From an uncultured Synergistia bacterium (GTDB taxonomy: Bacteria > Eremiobacterota > SpSt-956 > JAKJGF01), in contig CALARM010001058.1 of assembly GCA_937888925.1 (NCBI GenBank), positions 1-11,032 on the forward strand: a DNA stretch of 11,032 nt, read 5' to 3'. Below the pieces are notes generated by a model. The model had not been told where the DNA came from. It worked only from the letters and a program-made list of their open reading frames with translations, and made no database searches. Made by a program: the position numbers and the translations under genes. Positions 1-9,144 of the stretch are shown here, piece by piece (the stretch's first letter is position 1; each line of letters begins with the position of its first letter).

Positions 1-264
1 TATAACAAATTCACCGTAATTATGGACTTTAAAGGTTATTTCTTTATCATCATTTTCCATTACATTTTTCTCTATATATATTGTTAAATCTTCCACTGAA
101 AATTGAGTAAAAAATTCCTGATTTTCCGGTTTTTCCATAAGACCTGCCAGGCCTTCAAGTGCTCTTCATCACCCCTCCATAAACTGACGGTTAGTAATAT
201 TCATCACTCCTCCGAATTTACGGATATAATTTTTAAGCCATTCCGATGGTATGTTCACTGTCAT
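1..264 (-). CDS. Putative Sec-Sec selenoprotein of unknown family, C-terminus outside window
   Basis: Reading on the minus strand from an ATG at 264 gives 88 codons to the window edge, open except for two adjacent in-frame TGA codons (171-169 and 168-166), residues 32 and 33. The local sequence is MEG-U-U-RALEGLAGL, so a Cys-Cys pair replaced by Sec-Sec is the natural reading. The start overlaps the arsC stop by four bases (ATGA), a translational-coupling signature that supports a real gene. A second possible start is the Met at residue 21, just after a strong GGAGGA. A hairpin at 155-139 fits a bacterial SECIS. The protein looks soluble and acidic beyond the UU; no signal peptide or membrane segment is visible. 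I do not recognise the family. Its position as last known gene of an arsenic operon suggests a redox or arsenic-thiol role (inference). The alternative, a gene killed by two tandem nonsense codons, is less likely. Confidence 0.62.
139..155 (-). promoter_or_regulatory. Candidate bacterial SECIS hairpin for the Sec-Sec gene
   Basis: Read on the minus strand, AAGGCCU pairs with AGGUCUU (seven pairs, one G-U) around a GGC triloop. The loop starts 18 nt after the second UGA and 21 nt after the first. This fits the usual bacterial SECIS rule: apical loop about 16-37 nt downstream of UGA, with a G in its first two positions. Pairing was found by hand; no folding energy was calculated. Confidence 0.5.
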
Positions 265-659
265 TTATTTTCACGTCCGAGTAAATCTAAAACATTTTTC
301 TCTATATCATCTCTGACTTTTCTGAAAAATTCCATATCATGTCCTTTCGGATCATCTATCTTCCATTCGATTTTATTTCCCGAATAAATCACAGGACAGA
401 CTTCTTCAACAGAACAGCATCCCATAGTTATAACCATATCATAGGAGGAAAAATCTTCTGGTAATCCTTTTGAAGTCTGCCCTGAAATATCTATGCCCTT
501 TTCCTTCATTACTTCAATTCCCTGAGGATTTACTATGCCTGAAGGACATGAACCTCCACTTTCTGCAATAAATTTGCCACTGCCATGATGGTTTAAAAAT
601 CCTTCAGCTATCTGGCTCCGGCATGAGTTTTCATTGCATACAAAAAGTATTTTTTTCAT
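261..659 (-). CDS. arsC: Arsenate reductase, low-molecular-weight phosphatase fold
   Basis: Reduces arsenate to arsenite in the cytoplasm so that it can be exported. The 132-residue length and the N-terminal P-loop CNENSCR (C8-x5-R14, followed by S) are those of the LMW-PTPase-like ArsC family. The redox cysteines are in MGCCSVEEVCP (C81/C82 and C88), and the catalytic-acid motif is DDPKG (D103-P104). This architecture relies on thioredoxin for recycling, unlike the glutaredoxin-linked ArsC. The start at 659 has an excellent Shine-Dalgarno, AGGAGGA, nine to ten bases upstream. It lies 22 nt after the permease and overlaps the next gene by 4 nt. Its TGA terminator is the only TGA stop seen in the operon. 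Family assignment is firm; a phosphatase role is excluded mainly by the extra cysteines and the operon. Confidence 0.93.
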   Translation of the reverse strand: MKKILFVCNENSCRSQIAEGFLNHHGSGKFIAESGGSCPSGIVNPQGIEVMKEKGIDISGQTSKGLPEDFSSYDMVITMGCCSVEEVCPVIYSGNKIEWKIDDPKGHDMEFFRKVRDDIEKNVLDLLGRENK

Positions 660-681
660 AACAATAGTTCCTCCTGCAAAA

Positions 682-1728
682 TTACATAATCATATTAAAA
701 ATATAACCCACACATATAATCCCTGCTGTAACTATAGCTATATAAATTAATATTAACTGAATCTTCAAAACCTTTTTAATTATTATTATTTCCGGAAGAG
801 AGAGAGCTATTACTGACATCATAAAAGCCAGAACTGTTCCCAGAGAAGCACCTTTCTCAAGTAATGCCTGAACAACAGGAATTATACCTGCAGCATTGGA
901 GTACATTGGAACTCCGAGTAATACAGCCACAGGAACAGACCACCATGACGATTTTCCCATAATAGAAGCTATAAAATCTTCAGGCACATATCCATGAATA
1001 AAGGCACCTGCGCCTATTCCCAGTAAAATATAAGGCCATACCTTACCGATAATATCTCTTACTGCTTCTTTACCTTTATCGATACGAATAAACCAGTCTA
1101 ATTTTTCTTCAAAATCCGATGTGCCTGTATTTATTTGATAAACCCAGTCCTCTACAAATCTTTCCAGTTTCATTCTTCCAATAATCCACCCTGAGACTAT
1201 AGCAATAAAAAGCCCTGTCACCATATATATAAGAGCAATTTTCCATCCAAAAATAGCAAATAAGAGTATAAGTGCTACTTCATTCACCATAGGAGCAGAT
1301 ATAAGAAAGGAAAGTGTTACTCCAAGAGGAATTCCTGTTGTAACAAATCCTATAAAGAGAGGAACTGCCGAACAGGAACAGAAAGGTGTAACAATACCTA
1401 AAAGTGCAGCAAGTATATTTCCTATATATTCTTTTTTACCTTTAAGAATTTTTCTTGTTTTTTCAGGGGAGAAAAAACTTCTTATAATACCCACTACAAA
1501 TACTATTAATGTAAGAAGCATAAACACTTTTGGCACATCATAAAGAAAAAATTCTATAGATTTACCTGAGTGGCTTTCTTTAGAAAAGCCGAGTAAATTA
1601 TATGTAAGAAATTTAGAAATACTATCAAGACATAAATAAAGAGGTATCCATACCAGAACTGACAGTAAAATATAATATAATTGCCTGTAAGATTTTTTTT
1701 CATTTTTCTCTACAATATTTTCTGACAT
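682..1728 (-). CDS. arsP: ArsP-type permease (DUF318), organoarsenical efflux
   Basis: A 348-residue multi-span membrane protein with about eight hydrophobic segments. The diagnostic motif TPFCSCSAVPLF (about residues 115-126) and the downstream ISAPMVNEVA segment mark the DUF318 permease family. Characterised members (ArsP) export trivalent organoarsenicals such as methylarsenite, with the paired cysteines implicated in binding. A central hydrophilic loop (about residues 190-225) precedes the second half, which carries LGVPMYSNAAGIIPV. ATG 1728 is preceded by GGTGA at about 8 nt. It sits between the small thioredoxin-like gene (96 nt upstream, with a long inverted repeat in the gap) and arsC. 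Other DUF318 proteins have unproven substrates, so the ArsP label rests partly on the operon; some homologues work together with a small CxxC protein like the upstream neighbour. Confidence 0.75.
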   Translation of the reverse strand: MSENIVEKNEKKSYRQLYYILLSVLVWIPLYLCLDSISKFLTYNLLGFSKESHSGKSIEFFLYDVPKVFMLLTLIVFVVGIIRSFFSPEKTRKILKGKKEYIGNILAALLGIVTPFCSCSAVPLFIGFVTTGIPLGVTLSFLISAPMVNEVALILLFAIFGWKIALIYMVTGLFIAIVSGWIIGRMKLERFVEDWVYQINTGTSDFEEKLDWFIRIDKGKEAVRDIIGKVWPYILLGIGAGAFIHGYVPEDFIASIMGKSSWWSVPVAVLLGVPMYSNAAGIIPVVQALLEKGASLGTVLAFMMSVIALSLPEIIIIKKVLKIQLILIYIAIVTAGIICVGYIFNMIM

Positions 1729-1754
1729 TTATATCTTCACCGGTCTTTCCATTA

Positions 1755-1820
1755 TAATCTTTCAGCTATCAGCAGTCAGTTTTTATATAAAAAATCTGAT
1801 ACTTGATAGCTGAAAGATTA
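1755..1820. repeat. 17-bp perfect inverted repeat built from heptads
   Basis: Positions 1755-1771 and 1804-1820 are perfect reverse complements (17 bp), with a 32-nt partly complementary, AT-rich centre. Both arms also read as 7-bp units: TCAGCTA, TCAGCAG, TCAGTTT on the left (1762-1782) and CTGATAC, TTGATAG, CTGAAAG on the right (1796-1816). It fills the gap between two operon genes and would form a strong hairpin in the mRNA. No T-run follows, so a standard terminator is not evident; it could stabilise or segment the transcript. Confidence 0.85.
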
Positions 1821-1824
1821 CATG

Positions 1825-2055
1825 TTATTTAACCCATCCTTTAATCTCTTCCTTACCTGGCACACGACCGGCACATATTACCTTCCCGTCTATTACAAGA
1901 GCGGGAACAGTCATTACACCGTAAGACATAATCTTCTTCATGTCCTGAACCTTTACTAATTCTACATTAAGACCTTTTTCTTCTATTACCTGTTTTACAA
2001 GTTCATAGGTTTTTGTACAGTTTGCACAGCCCGGGCCTAAAACTTCTACTTTCAT
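1825..2055 (-). CDS. Small CxxC thioredoxin-like protein (redox-active disulfide protein 2 type)
   Basis: A 76-residue cytosolic mini-thioredoxin. It begins MKVEVLGPGCANCTK, giving the redox pair C10-x-x-C13, and has the cis-proline segment GVMTVPALVIDG. No signal peptide or membrane helix is seen. This matches the Thioredoxin_3 family found beside ArsP/DUF318 permeases and arsenic genes. The chosen ATG at 2055 is preceded by AAAGGAAG about 8 nt away. An in-frame ATG at 2082 directly abuts the ccdA stop (TAGATG) and would add nine basic residues; it has no better ribosome site. It may shuttle electrons to ArsC or supply thiols to the permease; which partner it serves is inference. Confidence 0.85.
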   Translation of the reverse strand: MKVEVLGPGCANCTKTYELVKQVIEEKGLNVELVKVQDMKKIMSYGVMTVPALVIDGKVICAGRVPGKEEIKGWVK

Positions 2056-2082
2056 TTTCTTTACTTCCTTTCTTTTAAACAT

Positions 2083-2775
2083 CTAAACCGCCTGCCAGAA
2101 TATATAAAATCCTCCAAGAACAAAAACAATACCGCTTACTTTTTTCATAATTGCAGAAAAACTCCCTATTCCTCTGGTTTTTGCCAGTTTATCAACAAAA
2201 CCCACACTTATTCCTGCCATAAGAACAAGAGTCCAGTGGCCTATGGCATAGAAGAGTAAAAGCGTTGCCCCGTAAAGAGCTTTCCCTTTTACTGACGCAA
2301 GGGCAAGAATGCCTATAAGAGCAGGTGTGGCACATGGAGCAGAAGCAAGGCCAAAAAGAAGACCAAGGATAAAACCACCGAGAATTCCCTTCTGTTTCGG
2401 CCGTATCTTCTGTATCGGTGCAGGCACCGGTATATTTAAAACACCCAGTAACTGTAATCCTGCTCCCACTGCCACAAGGGCTATGGCTATATAACCCCAT
2501 TTACCGAAGAGCTTCATAAAACCTCCGACAAAACCTACAGTTGCACCGAGAAGGGTAAAACTTACTGTCAGTCCTATGACAAAAATTATGGAATAAGACA
2601 CTGCTTTTCTTGTGTCTCCTTCTGCATATCCTCCTATAAAGCCTATGACAAGTGGTATTATGGCAATTACACATGGACTTGCACAGGAAAATAATCCCCC
2701 CAGGAAAACTGCTATATATGCAATGGCAGGGTTGGCATCAATCAGACCTGTCAGTTGATTGGCAATCTGTTCCAT
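2083..2775 (-). CDS. ccdA: CcdA-type transmembrane thiol:disulfide electron carrier
   Basis: A 230-residue inner-membrane protein with about six hydrophobic helices, the size and layout of the CcdA/DsbD-beta family. These proteins carry reducing equivalents from cytosolic thioredoxin to extracytoplasmic thiol proteins. Candidate redox cysteines sit in helix 1 (FSCASPCVIAIIP, C31 and C35) and helix 4 (ASAPCATPA), each next to a proline as in the family. Its ATG (2775-2773) shares one base with the TAA of the upstream Sec-thioredoxin (TAATG), so the two are translationally coupled and almost certainly work together. The gene ends 27 nt before the next start. The likely client is the membrane-tethered UGAC thioredoxin encoded just before it. 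Confidence 0.88.
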   Translation of the reverse strand: MEQIANQLTGLIDANPAIAYIAVFLGGLFSCASPCVIAIIPLVIGFIGGYAEGDTRKAVSYSIIFVIGLTVSFTLLGATVGFVGGFMKLFGKWGYIAIALVAVGAGLQLLGVLNIPVPAPIQKIRPKQKGILGGFILGLLFGLASAPCATPALIGILALASVKGKALYGATLLLFYAIGHWTLVLMAGISVGFVDKLAKTRGIGSFSAIMKKVSGIVFVLGGFYIFWQAV

Positions 2776-3179
2776 TATTTTATGAATCCTTTTTCTTTGA
2801 AAATTTTCTTTATATCTTCTTCCGCCAGAAAACCTTCATGACGGTAAACTTCTTTTCCCTCTGAGTCATAAAAAATCTGGGTAGGAATAACTTTTATAGA
2901 TACTTTCATAACTTTTTCTCTGTTTTCCTTTATCTTTACATCTATAAAATCCACTCTTATTTGCCCTTCATATTGTTTCTGTAGAGATTCCAGCACGGGA
3001 ACCATTTTTTTACAGGCTCCTCAGCCATGAGAACCATAATCAACCATAGCTGGAAATGTTTCGTCTTTACTGGCAGATGTGCCTGTGCCGGAAGGTTTGT
3101 TTTTTATAAGGTACATTCCTATAAATACTGCCACGACGATTAATATTATTGATGTTTTGAATACCATATTTCTGTTCAT
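2775..3179 (-). CDS. Membrane-anchored selenocysteine thioredoxin (UGAC active site)
   Basis: From ATG 3179 the frame encodes 134 residues with one in-frame TGA at 3023-3021 (residue 53). Residues 8-25 form a hydrophobic N-terminal anchor, followed by a Gly/Ser/Thr linker. Then comes a thioredoxin fold: GSHG-U53-G-A-C56-KKMVPVLE, VDFIDVK, and the cis-Pro segment VIPTQIFYDSEG (P99). U53 falls exactly on the first Cys of CxxC, so Sec is strongly indicated; the half after the TGA cannot work alone because it would lose the attacking residue. A SECIS-like hairpin lies at 3003-2986. The purine-rich AGAGGAGG is about 19 nt from the ATG, longer than usual, so initiation is slightly uncertain, but an in-frame TAA just upstream bars a longer protein. 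The stop overlaps ccdA by 1 nt. Predicted to face outward and be reduced by CcdA. Confidence 0.85.
2986..3003 (-). promoter_or_regulatory. Candidate SECIS hairpin of the thioredoxin gene
   Basis: Minus-strand GGUUCC pairs with GGAAUC (six pairs, one G-U) around the loop CGUGCU. The loop begins at nt 24 after the UGA and has G at its second position, matching bacterial SECIS rules. The lectin gene has the same CGUG at the same distance. A competing hairpin, GGAGCC with GGUUCC directly after UGA, shares one arm and may alternate with it. Confidence 0.65.
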
Positions 3180-3260
3180 AAATTATTTAGATAAACTGCC
3201 TCCTCTAAAGCTTTATTTTATTCAATTAAAAATGAAGATTATACCTTTGAATATCTCCTG

Positions 3261-3818
3261 TTATTTATCAAATTCAACTATACAGGCAGGTAAAACAGTA
3301 TCTTTACTGATATCATTCCATAATGGCTTATCTTTCATACCGGGCCTGTAAAAACACATAGCATCTTCTGTGCCTTTATAATTATTCGGCTCTCCCTGTG
3401 CCCAGCTGCTGTATTTAATTTTTTCTCCTTTAATCCATTTCCACATTCCCTCTTTTTTATATCCTCCTATCCAGGGGCCGCATCCGTTACCGGAACCATC
3501 TATTACCCATAATTCTTTCTTTTTACATATTAATTTATAAATAAAATTATTTTCACTTTCCGATGTTATTGTTGCAAGATATCCTCCTGAATCTTCGGCT
3601 GCTTTCTTTGCATCTTCCCAGGTAAAACCCCAGGGAACAGGCAAAACCTGATAGGAATGACCGTTACCTCCGTCACTTTTTGACCATATGGAAGGGCTCA
3701 CGGCCCCGCTACAACTGCCTGGCCCTCAGCCTCCGGCATATGCAGGACATATGAGTGAATACAGGATTGTCAGACAGAACAGGGATGCCAGTAATATTAA
3801 ATAATTTTTTTTATACAT
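3261..3818 (-). CDS. Exported C-type-lectin-like selenoprotein
   Basis: The gene starts at ATG 3818, seven or so bases after AGGAGAG, and encodes 185 residues with one in-frame TGA (3728-3726, residue 31). The N-terminus is a textbook signal peptide: MYKKNY, a hydrophobic core, and cleavage after PAYA (residue 28). The mature protein would begin GG-U-GPGSCSG, placing Sec at position 3 and a Cys five residues later (U-x4-C). Residues about 53-183 form a C-type lectin domain: WEDAKKAAEDSGGYLATI, WIGG (116-119), the sugar/calcium motif EPN (143-145) and WND (167-169). Further Cys residues could form disulfides. Gene callers would start at the GTG at 3701, losing export signal and Sec. The frame is open on both sides of the TGA and a SECIS-like hairpin follows. 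Ligand and role are unknown; position before the Sec-thioredoxin suggests it is its redox partner. Confidence 0.82.
3693..3707 (-). promoter_or_regulatory. Candidate SECIS hairpin of the lectin gene
   Basis: Minus-strand GGGGC pairs with GCCCU (five pairs, outermost G-U) around CGUGA. The loop starts at nt 24 after the UGA with G second, identical in position and first four bases to the thioredoxin element. A longer competing stem, GAGGGC with GCCCUU, starts inside the UGA and would enclose this region. Confidence 0.6.
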
Positions 3819-3836
3819 AGTATCTCTCCTTTTTTT

Positions 3837-3878
3837 GTAATTCGTAATGCGTAATGGGTGATGCGTAATGTGTCATTA
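3837..3878. repeat. Six degenerate heptanucleotide repeats
   Basis: On the plus strand the stretch divides cleanly into six 7-mers: GTAATTC, GTAATGC, GTAATGG, GTGATGC, GTAATGT, GTCATTA. Each differs from GTAATGC by one to three bases. It lies in the 62-nt gap between the small exported protein gene and the lectin gene, ending just before the lectin ribosome site. It resembles the 7-bp periodic sequences at 1755-1820 and 9006-9144, though the unit sequence differs. Confidence 0.85.
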
Positions 3879-3880
3879 TA

Positions 3881-4246
3881 CTATTTACTTACCCTGATTG
3901 TTCCCTCGCTTATTCCTTCTTTATCACATTGCCGCCATACACGGATAGTCCCCTGAGCATCTGTCAGTTTTATGTCAAGAACTATCTCGAACACTCTTTT
4001 ACTGACCTGTTTCCATTCCCCCTTTTTTATTAATTTTACTCCTGTGTAATCGAAATTTACATCTTTCAGTTTTTCCGGGCAGTTTTTATGGGCCAGTTCC
4101 AGAGTTACCTTTACGGAAGCCATGTTATTACTGTTTACTTTTATCGCCGACGGCTCGAAGGTAATGTCACAGGCAAAAAGTTTTTCTCTGTTGAAAACAA
4201 GTAATATTAATAACAGGAGTGGCAACAAAATGTTTGTTTTTTTCAT
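3881..4246 (-). CDS. Small exported protein of unknown function
   Basis: A 121-residue protein that I do not recognise. It begins MKKTNILL followed by a Leu-rich core, and the export signal ends near KLFA-CDITFEP. The residue after the likely cleavage is Cys, so a lipoprotein is possible (LFAC is a poor lipobox because of Phe). The mature part is beta-rich by appearance (alternating hydrophobics: SVKVTLEL, VFEIVLDIKL, GTIRVW), suggesting an immunoglobulin-like sandwich. It has three cysteines: that one, HKNCPEK and WRQCDKEG. ATG 4246 was chosen because AAAGGA lies about nine bases upstream and the signal peptide starts there. An in-frame ATG at 4300 would overlap acr3 and add 18 residues before the signal. 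It lies 28 nt after acr3 and 62 nt before the lectin gene, grouping with the extracytoplasmic redox proteins. Confidence 0.8.
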   Translation of the reverse strand: MKKTNILLPLLLLILLVFNREKLFACDITFEPSAIKVNSNNMASVKVTLELAHKNCPEKLKDVNFDYTGVKLIKKGEWKQVSKRVFEIVLDIKLTDAQGTIRVWRQCDKEGISEGTIRVSK

Positions 4247-4274
4247 AATTAAAATTCCTTTCAAAATTGATTTT

Positions 4275-5339
4275 TTATTTATTACAATATTTCTCGACAA
4301 ACCATGTACCCTTCAATTTGAATGCCACATTTACAAGACTGATTAAAACAGGCACTTCAACAAGAGGTCCTATGACTGCAGCAAAAGCCTGATCTGAGCC
4401 GATTCCGAATACTGCTACTGCAACGGCAATGGCAAGTTCAAAATTATTACTCGCTGCTGTAAAGGAAAGACTTGTACTCTGTTCGTAATTCGCTCCCATT
4501 TTATAAGAAGTAAAATAAGAAACAAAAAACATAATAATAAAATAAATTACAAGAGGTAGGGCTATAAGAAGCACATTGAGAGGGTTTTTAACTATATAAT
4601 CCCCTTTTATTGAGAACATTACAACTATTGTAAATAAAAGAGCTATAAGTGTTATTGGACTTATTTTCGGGATGAATTTTTCCTGATACCAGATTTTATC
4701 TTTTATCCGAAGCAGGCTGTATCTGGTAATCAAACCTGCTAAAAAGGGAATTCCGAGATATATAAACACACTTACTGCAATCTGGCCTATTGTAATGGGA
4801 ACGGCAGTTCCCTGTGTAAGTCCGAGTGCTTTCGGGAGAAGTGTTATGAAAATATAGGCATAGACGGAAAAGAATAATATCTGGAAAATAGAGTTGAATG
4901 CCACAAGTCCTGCACAGTATTCCGTATCGCCTCCGGCAAGCTCATTCCATACTATTACCATGGCAATACATCTGGCAAGGCCAATCATTATAAGACCTTC
5001 CATAAATCCCTGATGAACTCGAAGGAAAATTACTGCAAGTATAAACATCAAGATTGGCCCTATGAGCCAGTTCTGTAAAAGAGAAATGGCAAGGATTTTT
5101 AAGTTTTTAAACACCTGAGGTAATTCTTCATATTTCACCTTTGCAAGAGGAGGATACATCATGAGTATGAGGCCTATGGCAATAGGTATTGAAGTTGTTC
5201 CTATCTGAAACCTGTTTATAAGCTCCTTTAACTGGGGAACGAAATAGCCGAGAGCCACTCCTGCTATCATGGCAAGAAATATCCAGAGTGTTAAAAACCT
5301 GTCCGGGAATGGTAGTTTTTTTATAGCCGATTCAGACAT
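4275..5339 (-). CDS. acr3: Arsenite efflux transporter, ACR3 family
   Basis: Exports arsenite (and possibly antimonite) across the cytoplasmic membrane. The 354-residue length, about ten hydrophobic helices and the family motif [12 protein letters not shown] (conserved Cys at residue 124) identify ACR3 rather than the unrelated ArsB. The late segment [21 protein letters not shown] is also typical. ATG 5339 has AGGGAGAG about eight bases upstream. It is the second gene of the operon, 75 nt after arsR, and receives arsenite produced by the arsenate reductase encoded downstream. The gap before it contains a possible second ArsR operator. The gene appears intact. Confidence 0.95.
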
Positions 5340-5376
5340 ATAAAATCTCTCCCTGTAATTTAAATTTTCATATAAA

Positions 5377-5390
5377 CATATATTAATATG
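5377..5390. promoter_or_regulatory. Possible second ArsR operator in arsR-acr3 gap
   Basis: CATAT-ATTA-ATATG is a perfect 5-bp inverted repeat with a 4-nt spacer. The operator at the arsR promoter contains CATAT-TATG-ATATG with the same half-sites and spacing. It may let the repressor tune acr3 separately. In AT-rich DNA such a match could be chance. Confidence 0.4.
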
Positions 5391-5414
5391 AACTGAAAAA
5401 AAATAATATAAAAT

Positions 5415-5777
5415 CTATTTACATTTACATTCAATTACTCTCATGTTTTTTGAAAGTCCGGCCAGGTTATTACATTCCGCTTTAAATTCTTCCAGTTCTT
5501 CAAGATTGGAAGCAATAAAATTATTAAAAGAACTTAAAAAATCTTCAAGAACTTTTTTATTCAGAGAATAATAGGCCCATTTACCCTCATTTCTTTCCCT
5601 TACAAGCTCTACTTCTTTAAGTCTTTTAAGCTGCTGTGATACAGTGGGCTGTTTTAACCCCGTAACTTCTTCAATCTCACAGACACATAATTCTTTACAG
5701 GTAAGGAGTTTGAAAAGCTTCAGTCTTGCAGGATCACCGAGTATTTTTAATATATTCACATAATTATGTATTTTCAT
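5415..5777 (-). CDS. arsR: ArsR-family arsenic-responsive repressor
   Basis: A 120-residue winged-helix repressor of the ArsR/SmtB family, expected to leave the operator when arsenite binds. The helix preceding the recognition helix carries ELCVCEIEE, the classic ELCVC arsenite-binding motif, followed by the DNA-reading segment TGLKQPTVSQQLKRLKE. The beta-wing follows (VRERNEGKWAYYSLN). The C-terminus adds a further Cys cluster, ECKCK, plus a Cys in AECNN, which may form or extend a metal site. ATG 5777 is preferred because GGAG lies five bases upstream; the longer reading from 5798 lacks a ribosome site and would overlap the operator. It is the first gene of the ars operon and most likely autoregulated through the site at 5795-5810. 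Confidence 0.95.
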   Translation of the reverse strand: MKIHNYVNILKILGDPARLKLFKLLTCKELCVCEIEEVTGLKQPTVSQQLKRLKEVELVRERNEGKWAYYSLNKKVLEDFLSSFNNFIASNLEELEEFKAECNNLAGLSKNMRVIECKCK

Positions 5778-5794
5778 AATATCTCCATAAATTC

Positions 5795-5810
5795 TCATAT
5801 TATGATATGA
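5795..5810. promoter_or_regulatory. Predicted ArsR operator
   Basis: TCATAT-TATG-ATATGA is a perfect 6-bp inverted repeat with a 4-nt spacer. It touches the -10 box and covers the predicted transcription start, where a bound repressor would block initiation. Further TATATGAT-like sequence continues to 5820, so the full operator may be longer. Confidence 0.6.
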
Positions 5811-5838
5811 TTATATGATGAAATAAAATTCCTGTCAA
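5810..5838 (-). promoter_or_regulatory. Consensus sigma-70 promoter of the ars operon
   Basis: On the minus strand TTGACA (5838-5833) and TATAAT (5815-5810) are separated by exactly 17 nt. Both boxes and the spacer are perfect consensus. The start site should fall near 5803, giving a leader of about 25 nt before arsR. Such a strong promoter makes sense only if tightly repressed, consistent with the overlapping inverted repeat. Confidence 0.85.
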
Positions 5839-6216
5839 GAGAAATTATAATTTGAAGAAAATCTGGCATAATATTTGTCGTACTGTCCATATTCTCTCCC
5901 TCTTCTGGCAGGAGTACATCACAGGGAGAATTAAATACTTCACAGGTCTTACCTTCAAGATAATTTTCAAATTTAGTAAGGAGTCGCCTGAGGTATCTCT
6001 GATGGTTAAGGGTCGGAGCGGGACTCATATCATAAGGCTCTCCTTCTATTATTTCCCATCTCTCTTCATCAGGCCAGGTAGCATAATCTGAATAAGTATA
6101 AATCTTTTTTCTTTTTTTAATGGATCTGCCATAAATATCAACTCCAATTAATATTATATTACCATTTTGCATTTATTATGTATATAAATTTAATGGAAAA
6201 AGGGAATATAGTATTT

Positions 6217-6255: not shown

Positions 6256-9015
6256 ATGCAATGTAAAGAAGGCAGCAGAACATATGTTTATGAAGACAGA
6301 ATAATAACCGGCGGAACTGTTATAGTGCCGGAAATGAACAATTGCTCAATACCGCTTAAATCTACGGAAGTAAAAGGAAATATTAAAGGAGTAATAGCAG
6401 AGATAGAAGTAATACAAAAGTTCCATAATGATCTGGAGAAAAAAATAGAAGCTGTATATGTATTTCCCCTGTCAGAGAAAGGTTCGGTACATTTCCTGGA
6501 AATAAAAGCGGGGGAAAGAATAATAAGAGGAGAAATAAAGGAAAGGCAGGAAGCAAAACAGATATATAATAAAGCAAAATATGACGGAAGGAAAGCTGCC
6601 CTTCTTGAGGAAGAAAGACCCAATCTTTTCACCATGTCAGTTACCATTGAAGCAGACCAGGAAATAGAAGTTAAACTAAAATATTATGAAACACTTAAAT
6701 ATGAAAATAATGAATATGAATTTCACTTCCCCATGACAGTTACTCCCAGATATATCTCACATGAAGTAAGAGATGAAGAAAGAATCTCTCCTCCCATAAA
6801 AAGTTTTGATGAAAATAATAAGAGACATATTCATATATCTATAAATTTAGATACAGGTTTTGAAGTGGGAAATATCTATTCTCCGACACATAAATTGTAT
6901 ATAGAAGATAAGAGTAAATCTGTAAGAAACATAGAACTTGCCGGAGAGGGGGAATTACCGGATAAAGATTTTGTTCTTAAATATGCTTCTAAAGGTGAAA
7001 AGATGGAAAATACCATGTCTTTTTACAGGGAAAAAGGCAAAACAGGAACATTTATGTTAAATATTACACCGAAATTTGAATATGGCCCCGGGGAAATAGT
7101 AAAAAGAGAGGTTATATTTGTTCTTGACAGATCAGGTTCTATGTCCCTTTCATCGGGCCATAATGTAATTATACCTCCCTTTTACGATAAAATTCTTACA
7201 GTTCTACAGATTGAATTTTACAGTTTTCTGGACTATATTGACAGGCTGGAAAAAGATTCTGACTCTTTATCCATACAAAATAATCTGGAAAAAATTAAAG
7301 AAAAATCAGAGAATCTGCAGAAAATTATTCAGTCCCTGAAAAAAGAGGCATCCCTTTTCCGCACCAATACTGCTTTAAAGAAACTCGAAACATTTGAAAA
7401 TAAATTGAGAAAAATAATGGAAATAACATCTGATACACAGGATAGCCTTTCTTCCCATATTTCAGAAAAAAATTATTCTATCCTCTCAGATTCCCTTTTT
7501 CAGGTAAACATGGCTATGATAAAAAAAGAACTCTATGGAATTACAATTATTCATTTTGCTCCGGAAGTAACAATCTGTGATACGTTAAGTGTTATGGATC
7601 AGGCAAAGGATTCTTTAAAGAAAGCCCTTAAAACACTCAGGGCAGGCGATATATTCAATATTATTACCTTTGATGACAGAGTAGAAATACTATCAGAAAA
7701 ATCTCTGGAATTAAATGAAATAACTCTTATGATAGCAGATAATTTTATAAACAGCACATATGCAAGAGGAGGAACAGACATACTTTCTGCAATGAAGCGT
7801 GCCCTTTCTGTACCATCATCAAAGTCACATTTAAGACAGATTGTATTCCTTACAGACGGATCTGTAGGGAATGAAGAATTTGTTTTCGGAGAGGTAGAAA
7901 AATCTATGGGAAGAGCAAGAATATTTACCTTTGGCATAGGCCCTTCGGTAAACAGATATCTCCTGGAGAAAATGGCAAAATCTGGAAAAGGTTCTTCCTA
8001 TTTTATAACAAATCCAGAAGAAACAGGAGATACTATAGAAAGATTCAGTCTCCAGACTTCAACTCCTGTTCTTTCTGACATTACTCTTGACTGGGAAGGA
8101 GTCAGTGTATCGGACACCTATCCCTCTACCCTGCCGGATCTCTATACAGGACAGATCTTTAACGTATTCGGAAGATTTCATTCGGAAGGAAAAGGTAAAG
8201 CAATTTTAAAATACAGAACAGGTGAAGGAGATTTTAGAGAAGAGTTAGATGTGGAACTCCCCGGAGGAGAAATTTCTTATCCTGCAATAGAAACTATATG
8301 GGCAAAAGAGAGAATAGATTATCTTCTGGACAGACAGAGGGAAAATCCTAAAGAAAGATCTTCTCTGAGAGATGAAATCCTGGGACTTGCCCTGAAATAT
8401 AAAATCATTACTCCCTTTACATCCCTTGTGGCAGTGGAAAAAGATAATGAAGAGAGAGAAAGAGAAGAAATTATAACAGTAAAAGTTCCCCTCCTTCCTC
8501 CTGCACCTGTGCCGTCCAGCGAAGGTGTAGTATATTGTAAAGTAACTCCCGGAACAGGAAGTATTTCCAGAGGAACCAGAAAATCCGAATCACTTCTAGG
8601 ATATGATCTTTATTCCAGTACAGGAGAAAGTTTCTGGAACAGAGTATCAGACAATGCCGGTTTTATAAGTTCCATAGGAGACTTTCTCGTCCCTGATCCG
8701 GGAGCAGAAGTAACTTCCAGATACGGCTTTGATCCAATGCCGGGGAAACAGATGGCTATAAGTGCAGACCTGAATGGAGGTCTTATAAACCCTGATGAAG
8801 CTAAAAGGATAAGAAGAGAAAAAGAAGCTGAATATGAAAGGGAATTAAGAAAGGCAAGGGGCTGGTTCTATTATGCGAGATTGATATTCTTTACTCCTCT
8901 TTTCATATTGCTTTATATTATTACGGCCATAATTACAGGAGCAGTAGATATATTAAACATGTTATTTAATATAATAAAAGGATTTTCTAAATTTCTGTTT
9001 AAAAATAGTGAGTAG
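6256..9015 (+). CDS. VIT-vWA domain protein with helical insert and C-terminal membrane anchor
   Basis: A 919-residue protein. Residues about 10-140 form a VIT domain (IEAVYVFPLSEKGSVHFLEIKAG, then the EERPNLFTMSV segment). The vWA domain follows: MIDAS D291-R-S293-G-S295, T507 in ARGGTDI, and D534 in LTDGSVGNE, so all three metal-coordinating positions are present. Between the DxSxS strand and the first helix (which normally follows within a few residues) lies an extra stretch of about 147 residues (298-444) rich in Lys/Glu/Leu and probably coiled coil. A C-terminal helix at about 873-898 (RLIFFTPLFILLYIITAIITG) should be membrane-spanning, after a charged RREKEAEYERE run. No N-terminal signal peptide is seen, implying a cytosol-facing tail-anchored protein. 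Start 6256 has AAGGAG 11 nt upstream. The stop lies inside heptad repeats. Likely a scaffold for complexes; partner probably the downstream kinase. Confidence 0.9.
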   Translation: MQCKEGSRTYVYEDRIITGGTVIVPEMNNCSIPLKSTEVKGNIKGVIAEIEVIQKFHNDLEKKIEAVYVFPLSEKGSVHFLEIKAGERIIRGEIKERQEAKQIYNKAKYDGRKAALLEEERPNLFTMSVTIEADQEIEVKLKYYETLKYENNEYEFHFPMTVTPRYISHEVRDEERISPPIKSFDENNKRHIHISINLDTGFEVGNIYSPTHKLYIEDKSKSVRNIELAGEGELPDKDFVLKYASKGEKMENTMSFYREKGKTGTFMLNITPKFEYGPGEIVKREVIFVLDRSGSMSLSSGHNVIIPPFYDKILTVLQIEFYSFLDYIDRLEKDSDSLSIQNNLEKIKEKSENLQKIIQSLKKEASLFRTNTALKKLETFENKLRKIMEITSDTQDSLSSHISEKNYSILSDSLFQVNMAMIKKELYGITIIHFAPEVTICDTLSVMDQAKDSLKKALKTLRAGDIFNIITFDDRVEILSEKSLELNEITLMIADNFINSTYARGGTDILSAMKRALSVPSSKSHLRQIVFLTDGSVGNEEFVFGEVEKSMGRARIFTFGIGPSVNRYLLEKMAKSGKGSSYFITNPEETGDTIERFSLQTSTPVLSDITLDWEGVSVSDTYPSTLPDLYTGQIFNVFGRFHSEGKGKAILKYRTGEGDFREELDVELPGGEISYPAIETIWAKERIDYLLDRQRENPKERSSLRDEILGLALKYKIITPFTSLVAVEKDNEEREREEIITVKVPLLPPAPVPSSEGVVYCKVTPGTGSISRGTRKSESLLGYDLYSSTGESFWNRVSDNAGFISSIGDFLVPDPGAEVTSRYGFDPMPGKQMAISADLNGGLINPDEAKRIRREKEAEYERELRKARGWFYYARLIFFTPLFILLYIITAIITGAVDILNMLFNIIKGFSKFLFKNSE

Positions 9016-9144
9016 TGAGTGGTAATCAGGCATTATGCATTTCGATTATAGGTGAAGGGTGAAGATTGATGGGAGTTTATAGTTTAAGGTTTATAGTTGA
9101 GAGTTAGCTGGTTTTAAACTCTCAACCCTCAACTATAAACTTAC
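9006..9144. repeat. Heptad repeats ending in a long inverted repeat
   Basis: The gap between the vWA and kinase genes is largely 7-bp units. TAGTGAG occurs twice (9006-9019) and GGTGAAG twice (9051-9064). GTTTATA, GTTTAAG, GTTTATA, GTTGAGA, GTTAGCT follow (9075-9109), then the complementary series AACTCTC, AACCCTC, AACTATA, AACTTAC (9117-9144). Positions 9089-9101 and 9128-9140 are perfect 13-bp inverted repeats, and 9099-9105 pairs with 9117-9123. The first unit supplies the last codons and stop of the vWA gene. No terminal T-run follows the hairpin. Confidence 0.85.

What the first reader, a model, noticed from the sequence alone, without database searches (positions are those of the whole stretch)
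1..5838. An arsenic operon with three selenoprotein genes
Four in-frame TGAs occur in three genes of one operon, each at a Cys-like redox position and each set followed by a SECIS-like hairpin. The operon combines standard arsenic genes (ArsR, ACR3, ArsP, ArsC) with an outward-facing redox branch (CcdA, Sec-thioredoxin, exported Sec-lectin, exported Cys protein). I do not recall this combination being described. Inference: selenols, which are strong reductants and bind arsenic(III) tightly, serve arsenic or arsenic/selenium handling outside the cytoplasm.
Basis: partly seen in the sequence, partly recalled or inferred. Interest (0 to 1): 0.93.

Follow-up and report, generated by a model that had tools for sequence, protein, structure and literature searches.

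The report
Arsenic operon encoding three predicted selenoproteins
A bacterium, probably of the little-studied phylum Eremiobacterota, carries an arsenic-resistance operon in which three genes hold in-frame UGA codons predicted to be read as the rare amino acid selenocysteine, which would likely give the cell selenium-based reductants for dealing with arsenic at its envelope.

Summary
A minus-strand ars operon (ArsR, ACR3, exported Cys protein, lectin, thioredoxin, CcdA, ArsE-like thioredoxin, ArsP-family permease, ArsC, small protein) has four in-frame TGAs in three genes. The thioredoxin is the firmest case: in 34 related loci with at least two ars/CcdA neighbours the aligned residue is Cys in 32 and TGA in 2, and both TGA genomes have SelB and SelD. 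All three genes have a hairpin that fits three of four published bacterial SECIS rules; the energy rule is doubtful. The nearest lectins and all UU relatives found start just behind the TGA, but no Cys form of the lectin was found. The all-Cys CcdA/thioredoxin/redox-disulfide ars module is already published (PMC2963123). New, as far as my searches reach: its selenocysteine form plus two further predicted selenoproteins, one a C-type lectin. Inferred mechanism: electrons pass from a cytoplasmic thioredoxin through CcdA to a membrane-anchored Sec-thioredoxin and on to exported Sec/Cys proteins that meet arsenic outside the membrane. The window's own genome is not held, so its sel genes could not be checked. 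New variant of a known kind.

The parts
5415..5798 (-). ArsR/SmtB-family repressor, first gene of the operon
   Evidence: NF033788 93.3 bits, cut-off 55
4275..5339 (-). ACR3 arsenite efflux transporter
   Evidence: TIGR00832 452.7 bits, cut-off 282.8
3881..4246 (-). Predicted exported 121-aa protein with three Cys; beta-sandwich in a single-sequence model (pLDDT 79)
   Evidence: No Pfam hit; hydrophobic N-terminus and Cys 26, 56, 107; model; best PDB match E 1.2e-3
3261..3818 (-). Predicted exported Sec-lectin: signal-like N-terminus, U31 in AGGUGPGSC, then a C-type lectin domain
   Evidence: PF00059 30.5 bits, cut-off 22.6; model pLDDT 86.5 with C-type lectin fold; the four nearest proteins start behind the Sec codon; AGGAG before the ATG
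3726..3728 (-). Predicted Sec codon (TGA) of the lectin
3693..3707 (-). SECIS-like hairpin of the lectin: 5 bp, loop CGUGA, 23 nt after the UGA
   Evidence: folded
2775..3179 (-). Predicted membrane-anchored thioredoxin with UGAC active site (U53)
   Evidence: PF00085 48.6 bits across the Sec codon; KD19 2.36 from residue 7; Cys/TGA at this position in relatives
3021..3023 (-). Predicted Sec codon (TGA) of the thioredoxin
2986..3003 (-). SECIS-like hairpin of the thioredoxin: 6 bp, loop CGUGCU, 23 nt after the UGA
   Evidence: folded
2083..2775 (-). CcdA/DsbD_TM membrane electron carrier, start overlapping the thioredoxin stop
   Evidence: PF02683 70.2 bits; TAATG junction
1825..2052 (-). ArsE/MTH895-family thioredoxin-like protein (CANC), no hydrophobic segment
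   Evidence: TIGR00412 106.7 bits, cut-off 62
682..1728 (-). ArsP_1-family permease
   Evidence: PF03773 260 bits; 57% identical to the permease of the Cereibacter all-Cys module
261..659 (-). ArsC, low-molecular-weight phosphatase type arsenate reductase
   Evidence: PF01451 87.3 bits; TIGR02689 and TIGR02691 under their cut-offs
1..264 (-). Small protein with two consecutive predicted Sec (U32, U33); open at the window's end
   Evidence: NF041239 'CC/Se motif family (seleno)protein' 33.9 bits, cut-off 40, match spans the UU; 4 of 4 database relatives start downstream of UU
166..171 (-). Two adjacent predicted Sec codons (TGATGA)
139..155 (-). SECIS-like hairpin of the UU gene: 7 bp, loop GGC, 17/20 nt after the UGAs
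   Evidence: folded

Best explanation
An arsenic-resistance operon holds three genes with in-frame UGA codons predicted to be decoded as selenocysteine, and it likely runs an electron relay in which the cytoplasmic ArsE-like thioredoxin would reduce CcdA, CcdA would pass electrons across the membrane to an anchored Sec-thioredoxin (UGAC), and this would keep the exported Sec-lectin and Cys protein reduced and free of arsenic adducts. Shown: the gene order, the four in-frame TGAs, SECIS-like hairpins, TGA/Cys exchange at the thioredoxin position in other ars clusters, and the C-type lectin fold (model). Inferred: selenocysteine insertion itself, membrane topology, direction of electron flow, and the clients. 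ACR3 and the ArsP-family permease would export arsenicals, ArsC would reduce arsenate, and ArsR would switch the operon on. The cytoplasmic UU protein would bind As(III), or a selenium compound, through a selenol pair, much as a metallochaperone does; this is the least supported step.
For: Sec/Cys pairs: of 38 thioredoxin loci compared, 34 have at least two ars/CcdA neighbours; there the residue aligned to U53 is Cys in 32 and TGA in 2 (G126 GSKG*MSCKMM; G093 GRDT*ASCKRM), and the second Cys is kept in the best match of all 38. Both TGA relatives carry the same hairpin at the same place, and both genomes have SelB and SelD over the cut-off, which only 2 of 14 control genomes reach for each; tRNA-Sec is over its cut-off in G093 (80.2 bits). 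The four best thioredoxin hits in 398 genomes of G003's phylum all lie in permease-ArsE-thioredoxin-CcdA clusters. All three window genes satisfy rules i-iii of the bacterial SECIS model; thioredoxin and lectin share CCGTG at +23 to +27. The four nearest of 134 lectin hits and 4 of 4 UU hits begin at one and the same residue just behind the TGA. An Owens River Cereibacter plasmid has ArsR-permease-ArsE-rhodanese-thioredoxin(Cys)-CcdA some 10-15 kb from arsA, ACR3 and arsC.
Against: The window's own genome is not held, so its Sec machinery is unseen. Hairpins are moderate: z -1.6 to -2.0 alone, and in a 40-nt fold the thioredoxin and lectin prefer other pairings. In G126 the best tRNA-Sec score is 46.5 against 47 and may be another tRNA; the tRNA-Sec test is also not very specific (over the cut-off in 5 of 14 controls and in G044, which lacks SelB). 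No DNA of a lectin or UU relative could be read, so conservation of their TGAs rests on truncated protein starts. No Cys form of the lectin was found: of 31 relatives aligned, 25 have a complete N-terminus and none has a residue at the Sec column. The UU protein is under the NF041239 cut-off (33.9 against 40), and that family was not found in 294 and 299 genomes of two phyla, though no control rang either. Lectin matches in 6 of 26 genomes with a thioredoxin hit lie on other contigs. The thioredoxin tree neither groups the three Sec forms nor excludes one origin. Nothing here shows arsenic as the substrate of the exported proteins.
Confidence: 0.68

Rival explanations
1. The redox branch serves ArsC: thioredoxins and CcdA feed electrons to cytoplasmic arsenate reduction, as proposed for the Cys version in 2010; selenocysteine only makes it faster.
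For: PMC2963123 found these three redox genes in 8 ars operons, 7 of them with arsC, and proposed a putative arsenate reductase system (section 3.9). ArsC lies in the window operon and beside the Sec-thioredoxin in L092.
Against: The Sec-thioredoxin and the lectin have N-terminal hydrophobic segments, and the ArsE-like protein already supplies a cytoplasmic thioredoxin. The same authors call transmembrane electron flow less likely, but give as reason only that ArsC is cytoplasmic.
Confidence: 0.2
2. The relay is a general envelope thiol or cytochrome c maturation path that happens to be co-regulated with arsenic genes.
For: CcdA and thioredoxin domains are general (PF02683, PF00085); an Acetoanaerobium CcdA (35%) next to a thioredoxin lies in a stretch where none of the window's ars proteins matches. 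Sixteen weaker thioredoxin loci have no permease, ArsE or CcdA match.
Against: 34 of 38 compared loci have at least two ars/CcdA neighbours, and the four strong thioredoxin hits in G003's phylum are all in ars-type clusters.
Confidence: 0.08
3. The TGAs are real stops, pseudogenes or sequencing errors.
For: One contig only; no reads seen; the own genome is not held.
Against: Four TGAs in three otherwise intact genes; at the thioredoxin one, two other genomes also have TGA where the rest have Cys; independent database proteins are cut at the same points; reading frames continue into conserved domains.
Confidence: 0.03
4. UGA is reassigned to another amino acid genome-wide.
For: In-frame TGA as such.
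Against: Two window genes end in TGA; the long VIT and kinase frames hold none; the thioredoxin TGA falls on the active-site Cys.
Confidence: 0.01

Closest known systems
[quoted passage not shown] passages read)
   Same: Same redox trio beside ars genes; found here as an all-Cys module on plasmids and in genomes of three sampled phyla.
   Different: The window's thioredoxin has predicted selenocysteine; two further predicted selenoproteins (lectin, UU protein) and an exported Cys protein are added.
Bacterial Sec-thioredoxin, UxxC (listed in PMC13188914)
   Same: PF00085 domain, UxxC active site, SECIS-like hairpin directly downstream.
   Different: Predicted membrane anchor, next to CcdA, and encoded in an ars operon.
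CC/Se motif family (seleno)protein NF041239
   Same: Small protein; profile match spans the UU pair.
   Different: Under the curated cut-off (33.9 against 40); two adjacent Sec, whereas the catalogue lists one Sec per protein and the motif CxxU.
SAO (selenocysteine-assisted organometal) and Tso operons
   Same: Several selenoprotein genes in one operon with transporters or DsbD-like proteins (named in PMC13188914; the two Haft papers are not held).
   Different: Window proteins are far under the Sao/Tso cut-offs (SaoE 148.3 against 325, TsoB 65.4 against 805); none of the ten window proteins scanned reached the cut-off of a Sao or Tso model.
Sec-ArsC and Sec-arsenite methyltransferase (listed in PMC13188914, PMC9312934, PMC2398784)
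   Same: Selenocysteine in arsenic-related proteins.
   Different: Here ArsC is a Cys protein and the Sec lies in the redox relay, an exported lectin and a small protein.
C-type lectin domain proteins
   Same: PF00059 over the cut-off and a C-type lectin fold in the model.
   Different: N-terminal Sec/Cys motif GGUGPGSC, seen in none of 25 relatives with a complete N-terminus; the word 'lectin' does not occur in three selenoprotein papers searched for it.
ArsEFG organoarsenical efflux system (cited in PMC9144182)
   Same: ArsE/MTH895-family protein over the cut-off.
   Different: The CcdA-like protein is far under the ArsG cut-off (52.8 against 200).

Membership tests
Bacterial selenoprotein genes | In-frame UGA in an otherwise intact coding frame | tested here: met
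Bacterial selenoprotein genes | SECIS hairpin rules i-iii (loop and stem, G, 16-37 nt) | tested here: met
   rules
Bacterial selenoprotein genes | SECIS rule iv, MFE at most -7.5 kcal/mol | tested here: inconclusive
   Hairpins alone -4.9, -6.0, -6.9; 40-nt folds -7.9 to -12.6, but with other pairings for thioredoxin and lectin
Bacterial selenoprotein genes | Cys homologues at the Sec position, thioredoxin | tested here: met
   32 Cys and 2 TGA of 34 clustered loci
Bacterial selenoprotein genes | Cys homologues at the Sec position, lectin | tested here: not met
   None of 31 aligned relatives has a residue at the Sec column; 25 have a complete N-terminus without the motif, 6 are cut or start behind it
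Bacterial selenoprotein genes | Cys homologues or conserved TGA, UU protein | tested here: inconclusive
   Only truncated protein starts are seen; family name NF041239 'CC/Se'
Bacterial selenoprotein genes | selA, selB, selC, selD in the same genome | not testable with these tools
   own genome not held
ars operon with CcdA/thioredoxin/redox disulfide protein (PMC2963123) | The three redox genes next to ars genes | tested here: met
ars operon with CcdA/thioredoxin/redox disulfide protein (PMC2963123) | arsC in the operon (7 of 8 published cases) | tested here: met
   LMWPc 87.3 bits
NF041239 CC/Se motif family | Score at or over the curated cut-off of 40 bits | tested here: not met
   33.9 bits
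SAO / Tso systems | Members over the NCBIfam cut-offs | tested here: not met
   SaoE 148.3/325, TsoB 65.4/805, TsoX 18.8/52, TsoR (NF045707) 39.8/115, SaoT 17.7/65
ArsEFG | ArsG over the cut-off | tested here: not met
   52.8/200
C-type lectin domain | Pfam PF00059 over the cut-off and fold | tested here: met
C-type lectin domain | Calcium and sugar binding | not tested
   no assay available

The most novel reading that the evidence does not exclude
This is a selenium-powered arsenic defence of the cell envelope: an electron relay ending in selenols outside the membrane, with the first selenocysteine-bearing lectin as its exported client or arsenic trap, and a cytoplasmic double-Sec protein that carries arsenite as a bis-selenolate.
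Probability: 0.25. Interest if true: 0.87.

Novelty: new variant of a known kind. Interest (0 to 1): 0.63.

Why it matters
Selenium and arsenic antagonise each other in animals (recalled), but a bacterial operon that places selenoproteins among its arsenic-resistance genes would be a direct, testable link. The data give a Sec/Cys pair for the ars-linked thioredoxin, with TGA in three separate genomes, one candidate new selenoprotein family (an exported C-type lectin) and a protein with two adjacent predicted Sec. The database versions of the lectin and UU relatives are cut behind the UGA, so such operons are probably under-annotated.

Tried and rejected
Rfam scan of the window for a SECIS or other RNA family: ten matches, all under the gathering score and of unrelated families. 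Relatives of the lectin in genome contigs (3 weak ones; neighbourhoods not read) and viral contigs (34 loci at 31-44% identity, not read), of the UU protein in viral contigs (none) and plasmids (none). NF041239 in 3, 294 and 299 genomes: none, and no control rang, so no absence is claimed. Lectin in the 26 genomes with a thioredoxin hit in G001's phylum: matches in 6, each on another contig than the thioredoxin. Class of G126: 6 genomes, 3 with a hit, no new TGA case. Tree of 36 thioredoxins: too weak to date the Cys-to-Sec change. Fold search of the exported Cys protein: no match at E 0.001 or better. PDB search with the thioredoxin profile: the 60 of 257 rows shown are thioredoxins or thioredoxin-domain proteins, one uncharacterised. 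Genome-wide UGA reassignment and pseudogenes were considered and rejected (see rivals). TGA flags in G102, G264, G800, G700 and in G580, G327, G552, G607 were checked: the aligned active-site residue is Cys in each.

Selection in the 38-locus count: 2 plasmid loci, the 4 strongest loci, 12 loci, and 20 fetched regions (18 of the 26 genomes with hits in G001's phylum and 2 of the 58 with hits in G002's phylum). Six of the 20 (G126, G102, G264, G093, G800, G700) were fetched because the search had flagged a TGA, so 2 of 34 is not a frequency. The four loci left out of the 34 are L038 and L088 (only CcdA matched within reach) and L106 and L107 (no neighbour). Eight of 26 and 44 of 58 hit genomes were not read. 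Sixteen weaker loci (L052-L067) are not in the count: Cys in all 15 that aligned, no permease, ArsE or CcdA match.

Papers: PMC13188914, PMC2963123, PMC4220137, PMC5029168, PMC9144182, PMC12013277, PMC8938466, PMC9312934 and PMC2398784 were read by passages only; all others only as search listings. The two Haft papers on Sao and Tso are not held. Novelty in print rests on ten searches in an open-access library: nine on selenoproteins or ars redox genes (41 and 69 with Eremiobacterota, both empty) and one on ArsEFG. Most listings were capped (for example 25 of 1,183, 20 of 65).

Full report
What is there. The minus strand of window 1-5798 is one gene run: ArsR, ACR3, a predicted exported 121-aa Cys protein, a lectin, a thioredoxin, CcdA, an ArsE-like thioredoxin, an ArsP_1-family permease, ArsC and a small protein cut by the window's edge. 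Upstream lie a Uma2 gene and, on the plus strand, a VIT/VWA gene and a kinase-TPR gene. The three best hits of the VIT protein that carry an organism's name are Candidatus Eremiobacterota (49-54% identity over about a third of the protein), so the host is probably of that phylum. No genome is held for the window.

The four TGAs. Reading TGA as Sec gives a thioredoxin with HGUGACKK (U53), a predicted exported lectin with AGGUGPGSC (U31 from its ATG) and a small protein with MEGUURA (U32, U33). TGA also ends ArsC and the Uma2 gene, so it is a stop elsewhere. Pfam's thioredoxin match runs across the TGA (48.6 bits). NF041239, a family named 'CC/Se motif family (seleno)protein', matches the small protein across the UU pair, though under its cut-off (33.9 against 40).

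SECIS. A 2026 review gives rules for bacterial SECIS: (i) loop 3-9 nt and stem 4-16 bp, (ii) G in the first two loop positions, (iii) 16-37 nt from the UGA, (iv) MFE at most -7.5 (PMC13188914, passages). All three genes meet i-iii: thioredoxin 6 bp, loop CGUGCU, 23 nt; lectin 5 bp, loop CGUGA, 23 nt; UU 7 bp, loop GGC, 17 and 20 nt. Thioredoxin and lectin share CCGTG at +23 to +27. Hairpins as stable occur at 2.1-4.0% of 3139 coding positions. Each is the MFE structure of its +10 to +39 stretch, but in the 40-nt fold the thioredoxin and lectin pair otherwise; single shuffle tests are modest. I count the hairpins as supporting, not proving.

Relatives of the thioredoxin. A search of 398 genomes of G003's phylum (record title of L003: Chromatiales) gave 106 genomes with a hit at 1e-12; the four best (E under 1e-28) all lie with permease, ArsE and CcdA genes, all with Cys; 16 weaker loci do not. 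In 294 genomes of G001's phylum (record title of L001: Planctomycetota) 26 had a hit at 1e-20, in 296 of G002's phylum (record title of L002: Chishuiella) 58. Of 38 loci compared, 34 have two or more ars/CcdA neighbours; the aligned residue is Cys in 32 and TGA in 2 (how the loci were chosen is told under Tried and rejected). The two: G126, thioredoxin-CcdA-ArsC; and G093, ArsR-ArsE-thioredoxin-CcdA-permease. Both have the hairpin GGTTCTGGAGGAAC behind the TGA. Both genomes have SelB (373.0 and 293.8 bits, cut-off 242) and SelD (361.2 and 384.3, cut-off 125); among 14 control genomes 2 reach each cut-off. tRNA-Sec is over the cut-off in G093 (80.2 bits); in G126 the best is 46.5 against 47; this test is less specific, with 5 of 14 controls over the cut-off. 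Of eight other genomes tested, all with Cys thioredoxins, four have SelB and SelD over the cut-off and four do not. So Sec and Cys exchange at this very residue inside arsenic clusters of other lineages. The tree does not say how often or in which direction.

Relatives of the other two. The four closest lectins (69-86% identical in the alignment) are 148-154 aa long and all begin at the residue that is a GTG codon in the window, nine codons behind the Sec codon; all four UU relatives begin at Met 43, ten codons behind U33. This is what gene callers produce when a TGA blocks the frame; with Cys the proteins would be longer. Their DNA could not be read. Against this stands that no Cys form of the lectin turned up: of 31 relatives aligned with it, 25 have a complete N-terminus and go straight into the lectin domain, with no residue at the Sec column. 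The Sec motif therefore looks like an addition of this lineage. The lectin model is confident from residue 41 on and matches C-type lectins (best Foldseek E 5.6e-10); the Sec lies in a low-confidence linker, residues 25-37 of the modelled chain. In 26 genomes with a thioredoxin hit, lectin matches are on other contigs (6 genomes).

The module without selenium. A Cereibacter plasmid from the Owens River has ArsR, permease (57% identical), ArsE (41%), rhodanese, thioredoxin with SCAAC and CcdA, some 10-15 kb from arsA, ACR3 and arsC and beside a molybdopterin oxidoreductase cluster. Sulfuricella pSCD has the thioredoxin-CcdA pair in an ars region. Seven permease neighbourhoods on plasmids that I opened, of 206 records with a match, all include a thioredoxin-family gene. 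[quoted passage not shown] The core is therefore known; the selenocysteine form is what is new here.

Mechanism. Inferred: ArsE-like protein, CcdA and anchored thioredoxin form a chain like other CcdA-dependent periplasmic thioredoxin systems (recalled). A selenol at the end would react faster and bind As(III) more tightly than a thiol (recalled chemistry). Its likely duty is to keep exported Sec/Cys proteins reduced and to strip arsenic from them. The rival of 2010, electrons for ArsC, is not excluded.

Novelty. A 2026 catalogue lists Sec-thioredoxin, NF041239 with one Sec, Sao and Tso operons, and several arsenic-linked selenoproteins, but its text holds no 'lectin'; nor do two older selenoproteome papers. 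Ten library searches, most with capped listings, listed no paper whose title or abstract describes a selenoprotein ars operon of this kind. One paper on deep-sea sediments proposes arsenic-selenium crosstalk in general terms (PMC8938466, passages). Subscription papers, and the two key Haft papers, are not in the library. I file it as a new variant of a known kind.

Noticed in passing
window 1755-1820: Inverted repeat with 33-nt arms (82% complementary, no spacer) between the ArsE-like gene and the permease gene; it gives sub-threshold microRNA-like Rfam hits. Could be a terminator, attenuator or small mobile repeat inside the operon.
   Followed up: partly
window 9074-9141: Another intergenic inverted repeat (25-nt arms) between the VIT/VWA gene and the kinase-TPR gene.
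   Followed up: no
window 3838-3876: Short direct AATGCGTAATG-type repeats between the lectin and the exported Cys protein gene, seen by eye in the sequence.
   Followed up: no
window 5795-6172: Uma2-family gene whose stop overlaps the annotated ArsR start; its best stretch matches only positions 3-68 of the 172-position Pfam profile, so it may be a remnant.
   Followed up: no
window 6256-9015: VIT/VWA protein with a match to part of the FHIPEP profile (residues 817-859, PF00771, 44 bits), also precomputed for its four closest database proteins.
   Followed up: no
L042 4228-4446: Sulfuricella pSCD carries a 'GDCCVxC domain-containing (seleno)protein' gene between ACR3 and the permease of its ars cluster, another link of a Cys/Sec family to arsenic operons.
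   Followed up: partly
L041 7496-9982; L095 downstream of 9699: A molybdopterin oxidoreductase gene lies near the module on the Cereibacter plasmid, and a frame that looks like one by eye lies downstream of the Sec-thioredoxin cluster of G093; a tie to respiratory arsenic metabolism is possible.
   Followed up: no
L094, L096, L111: Some clusters hold two or three thioredoxin paralogues with CcdA, ArsC and ACR3.
   Followed up: no
G093, G111, G054, G015, G126: Five of six SelD genes over the cut-off have one internal TGA flagged by the search; my quick pattern check of two of them did not settle its position.
   Followed up: partly
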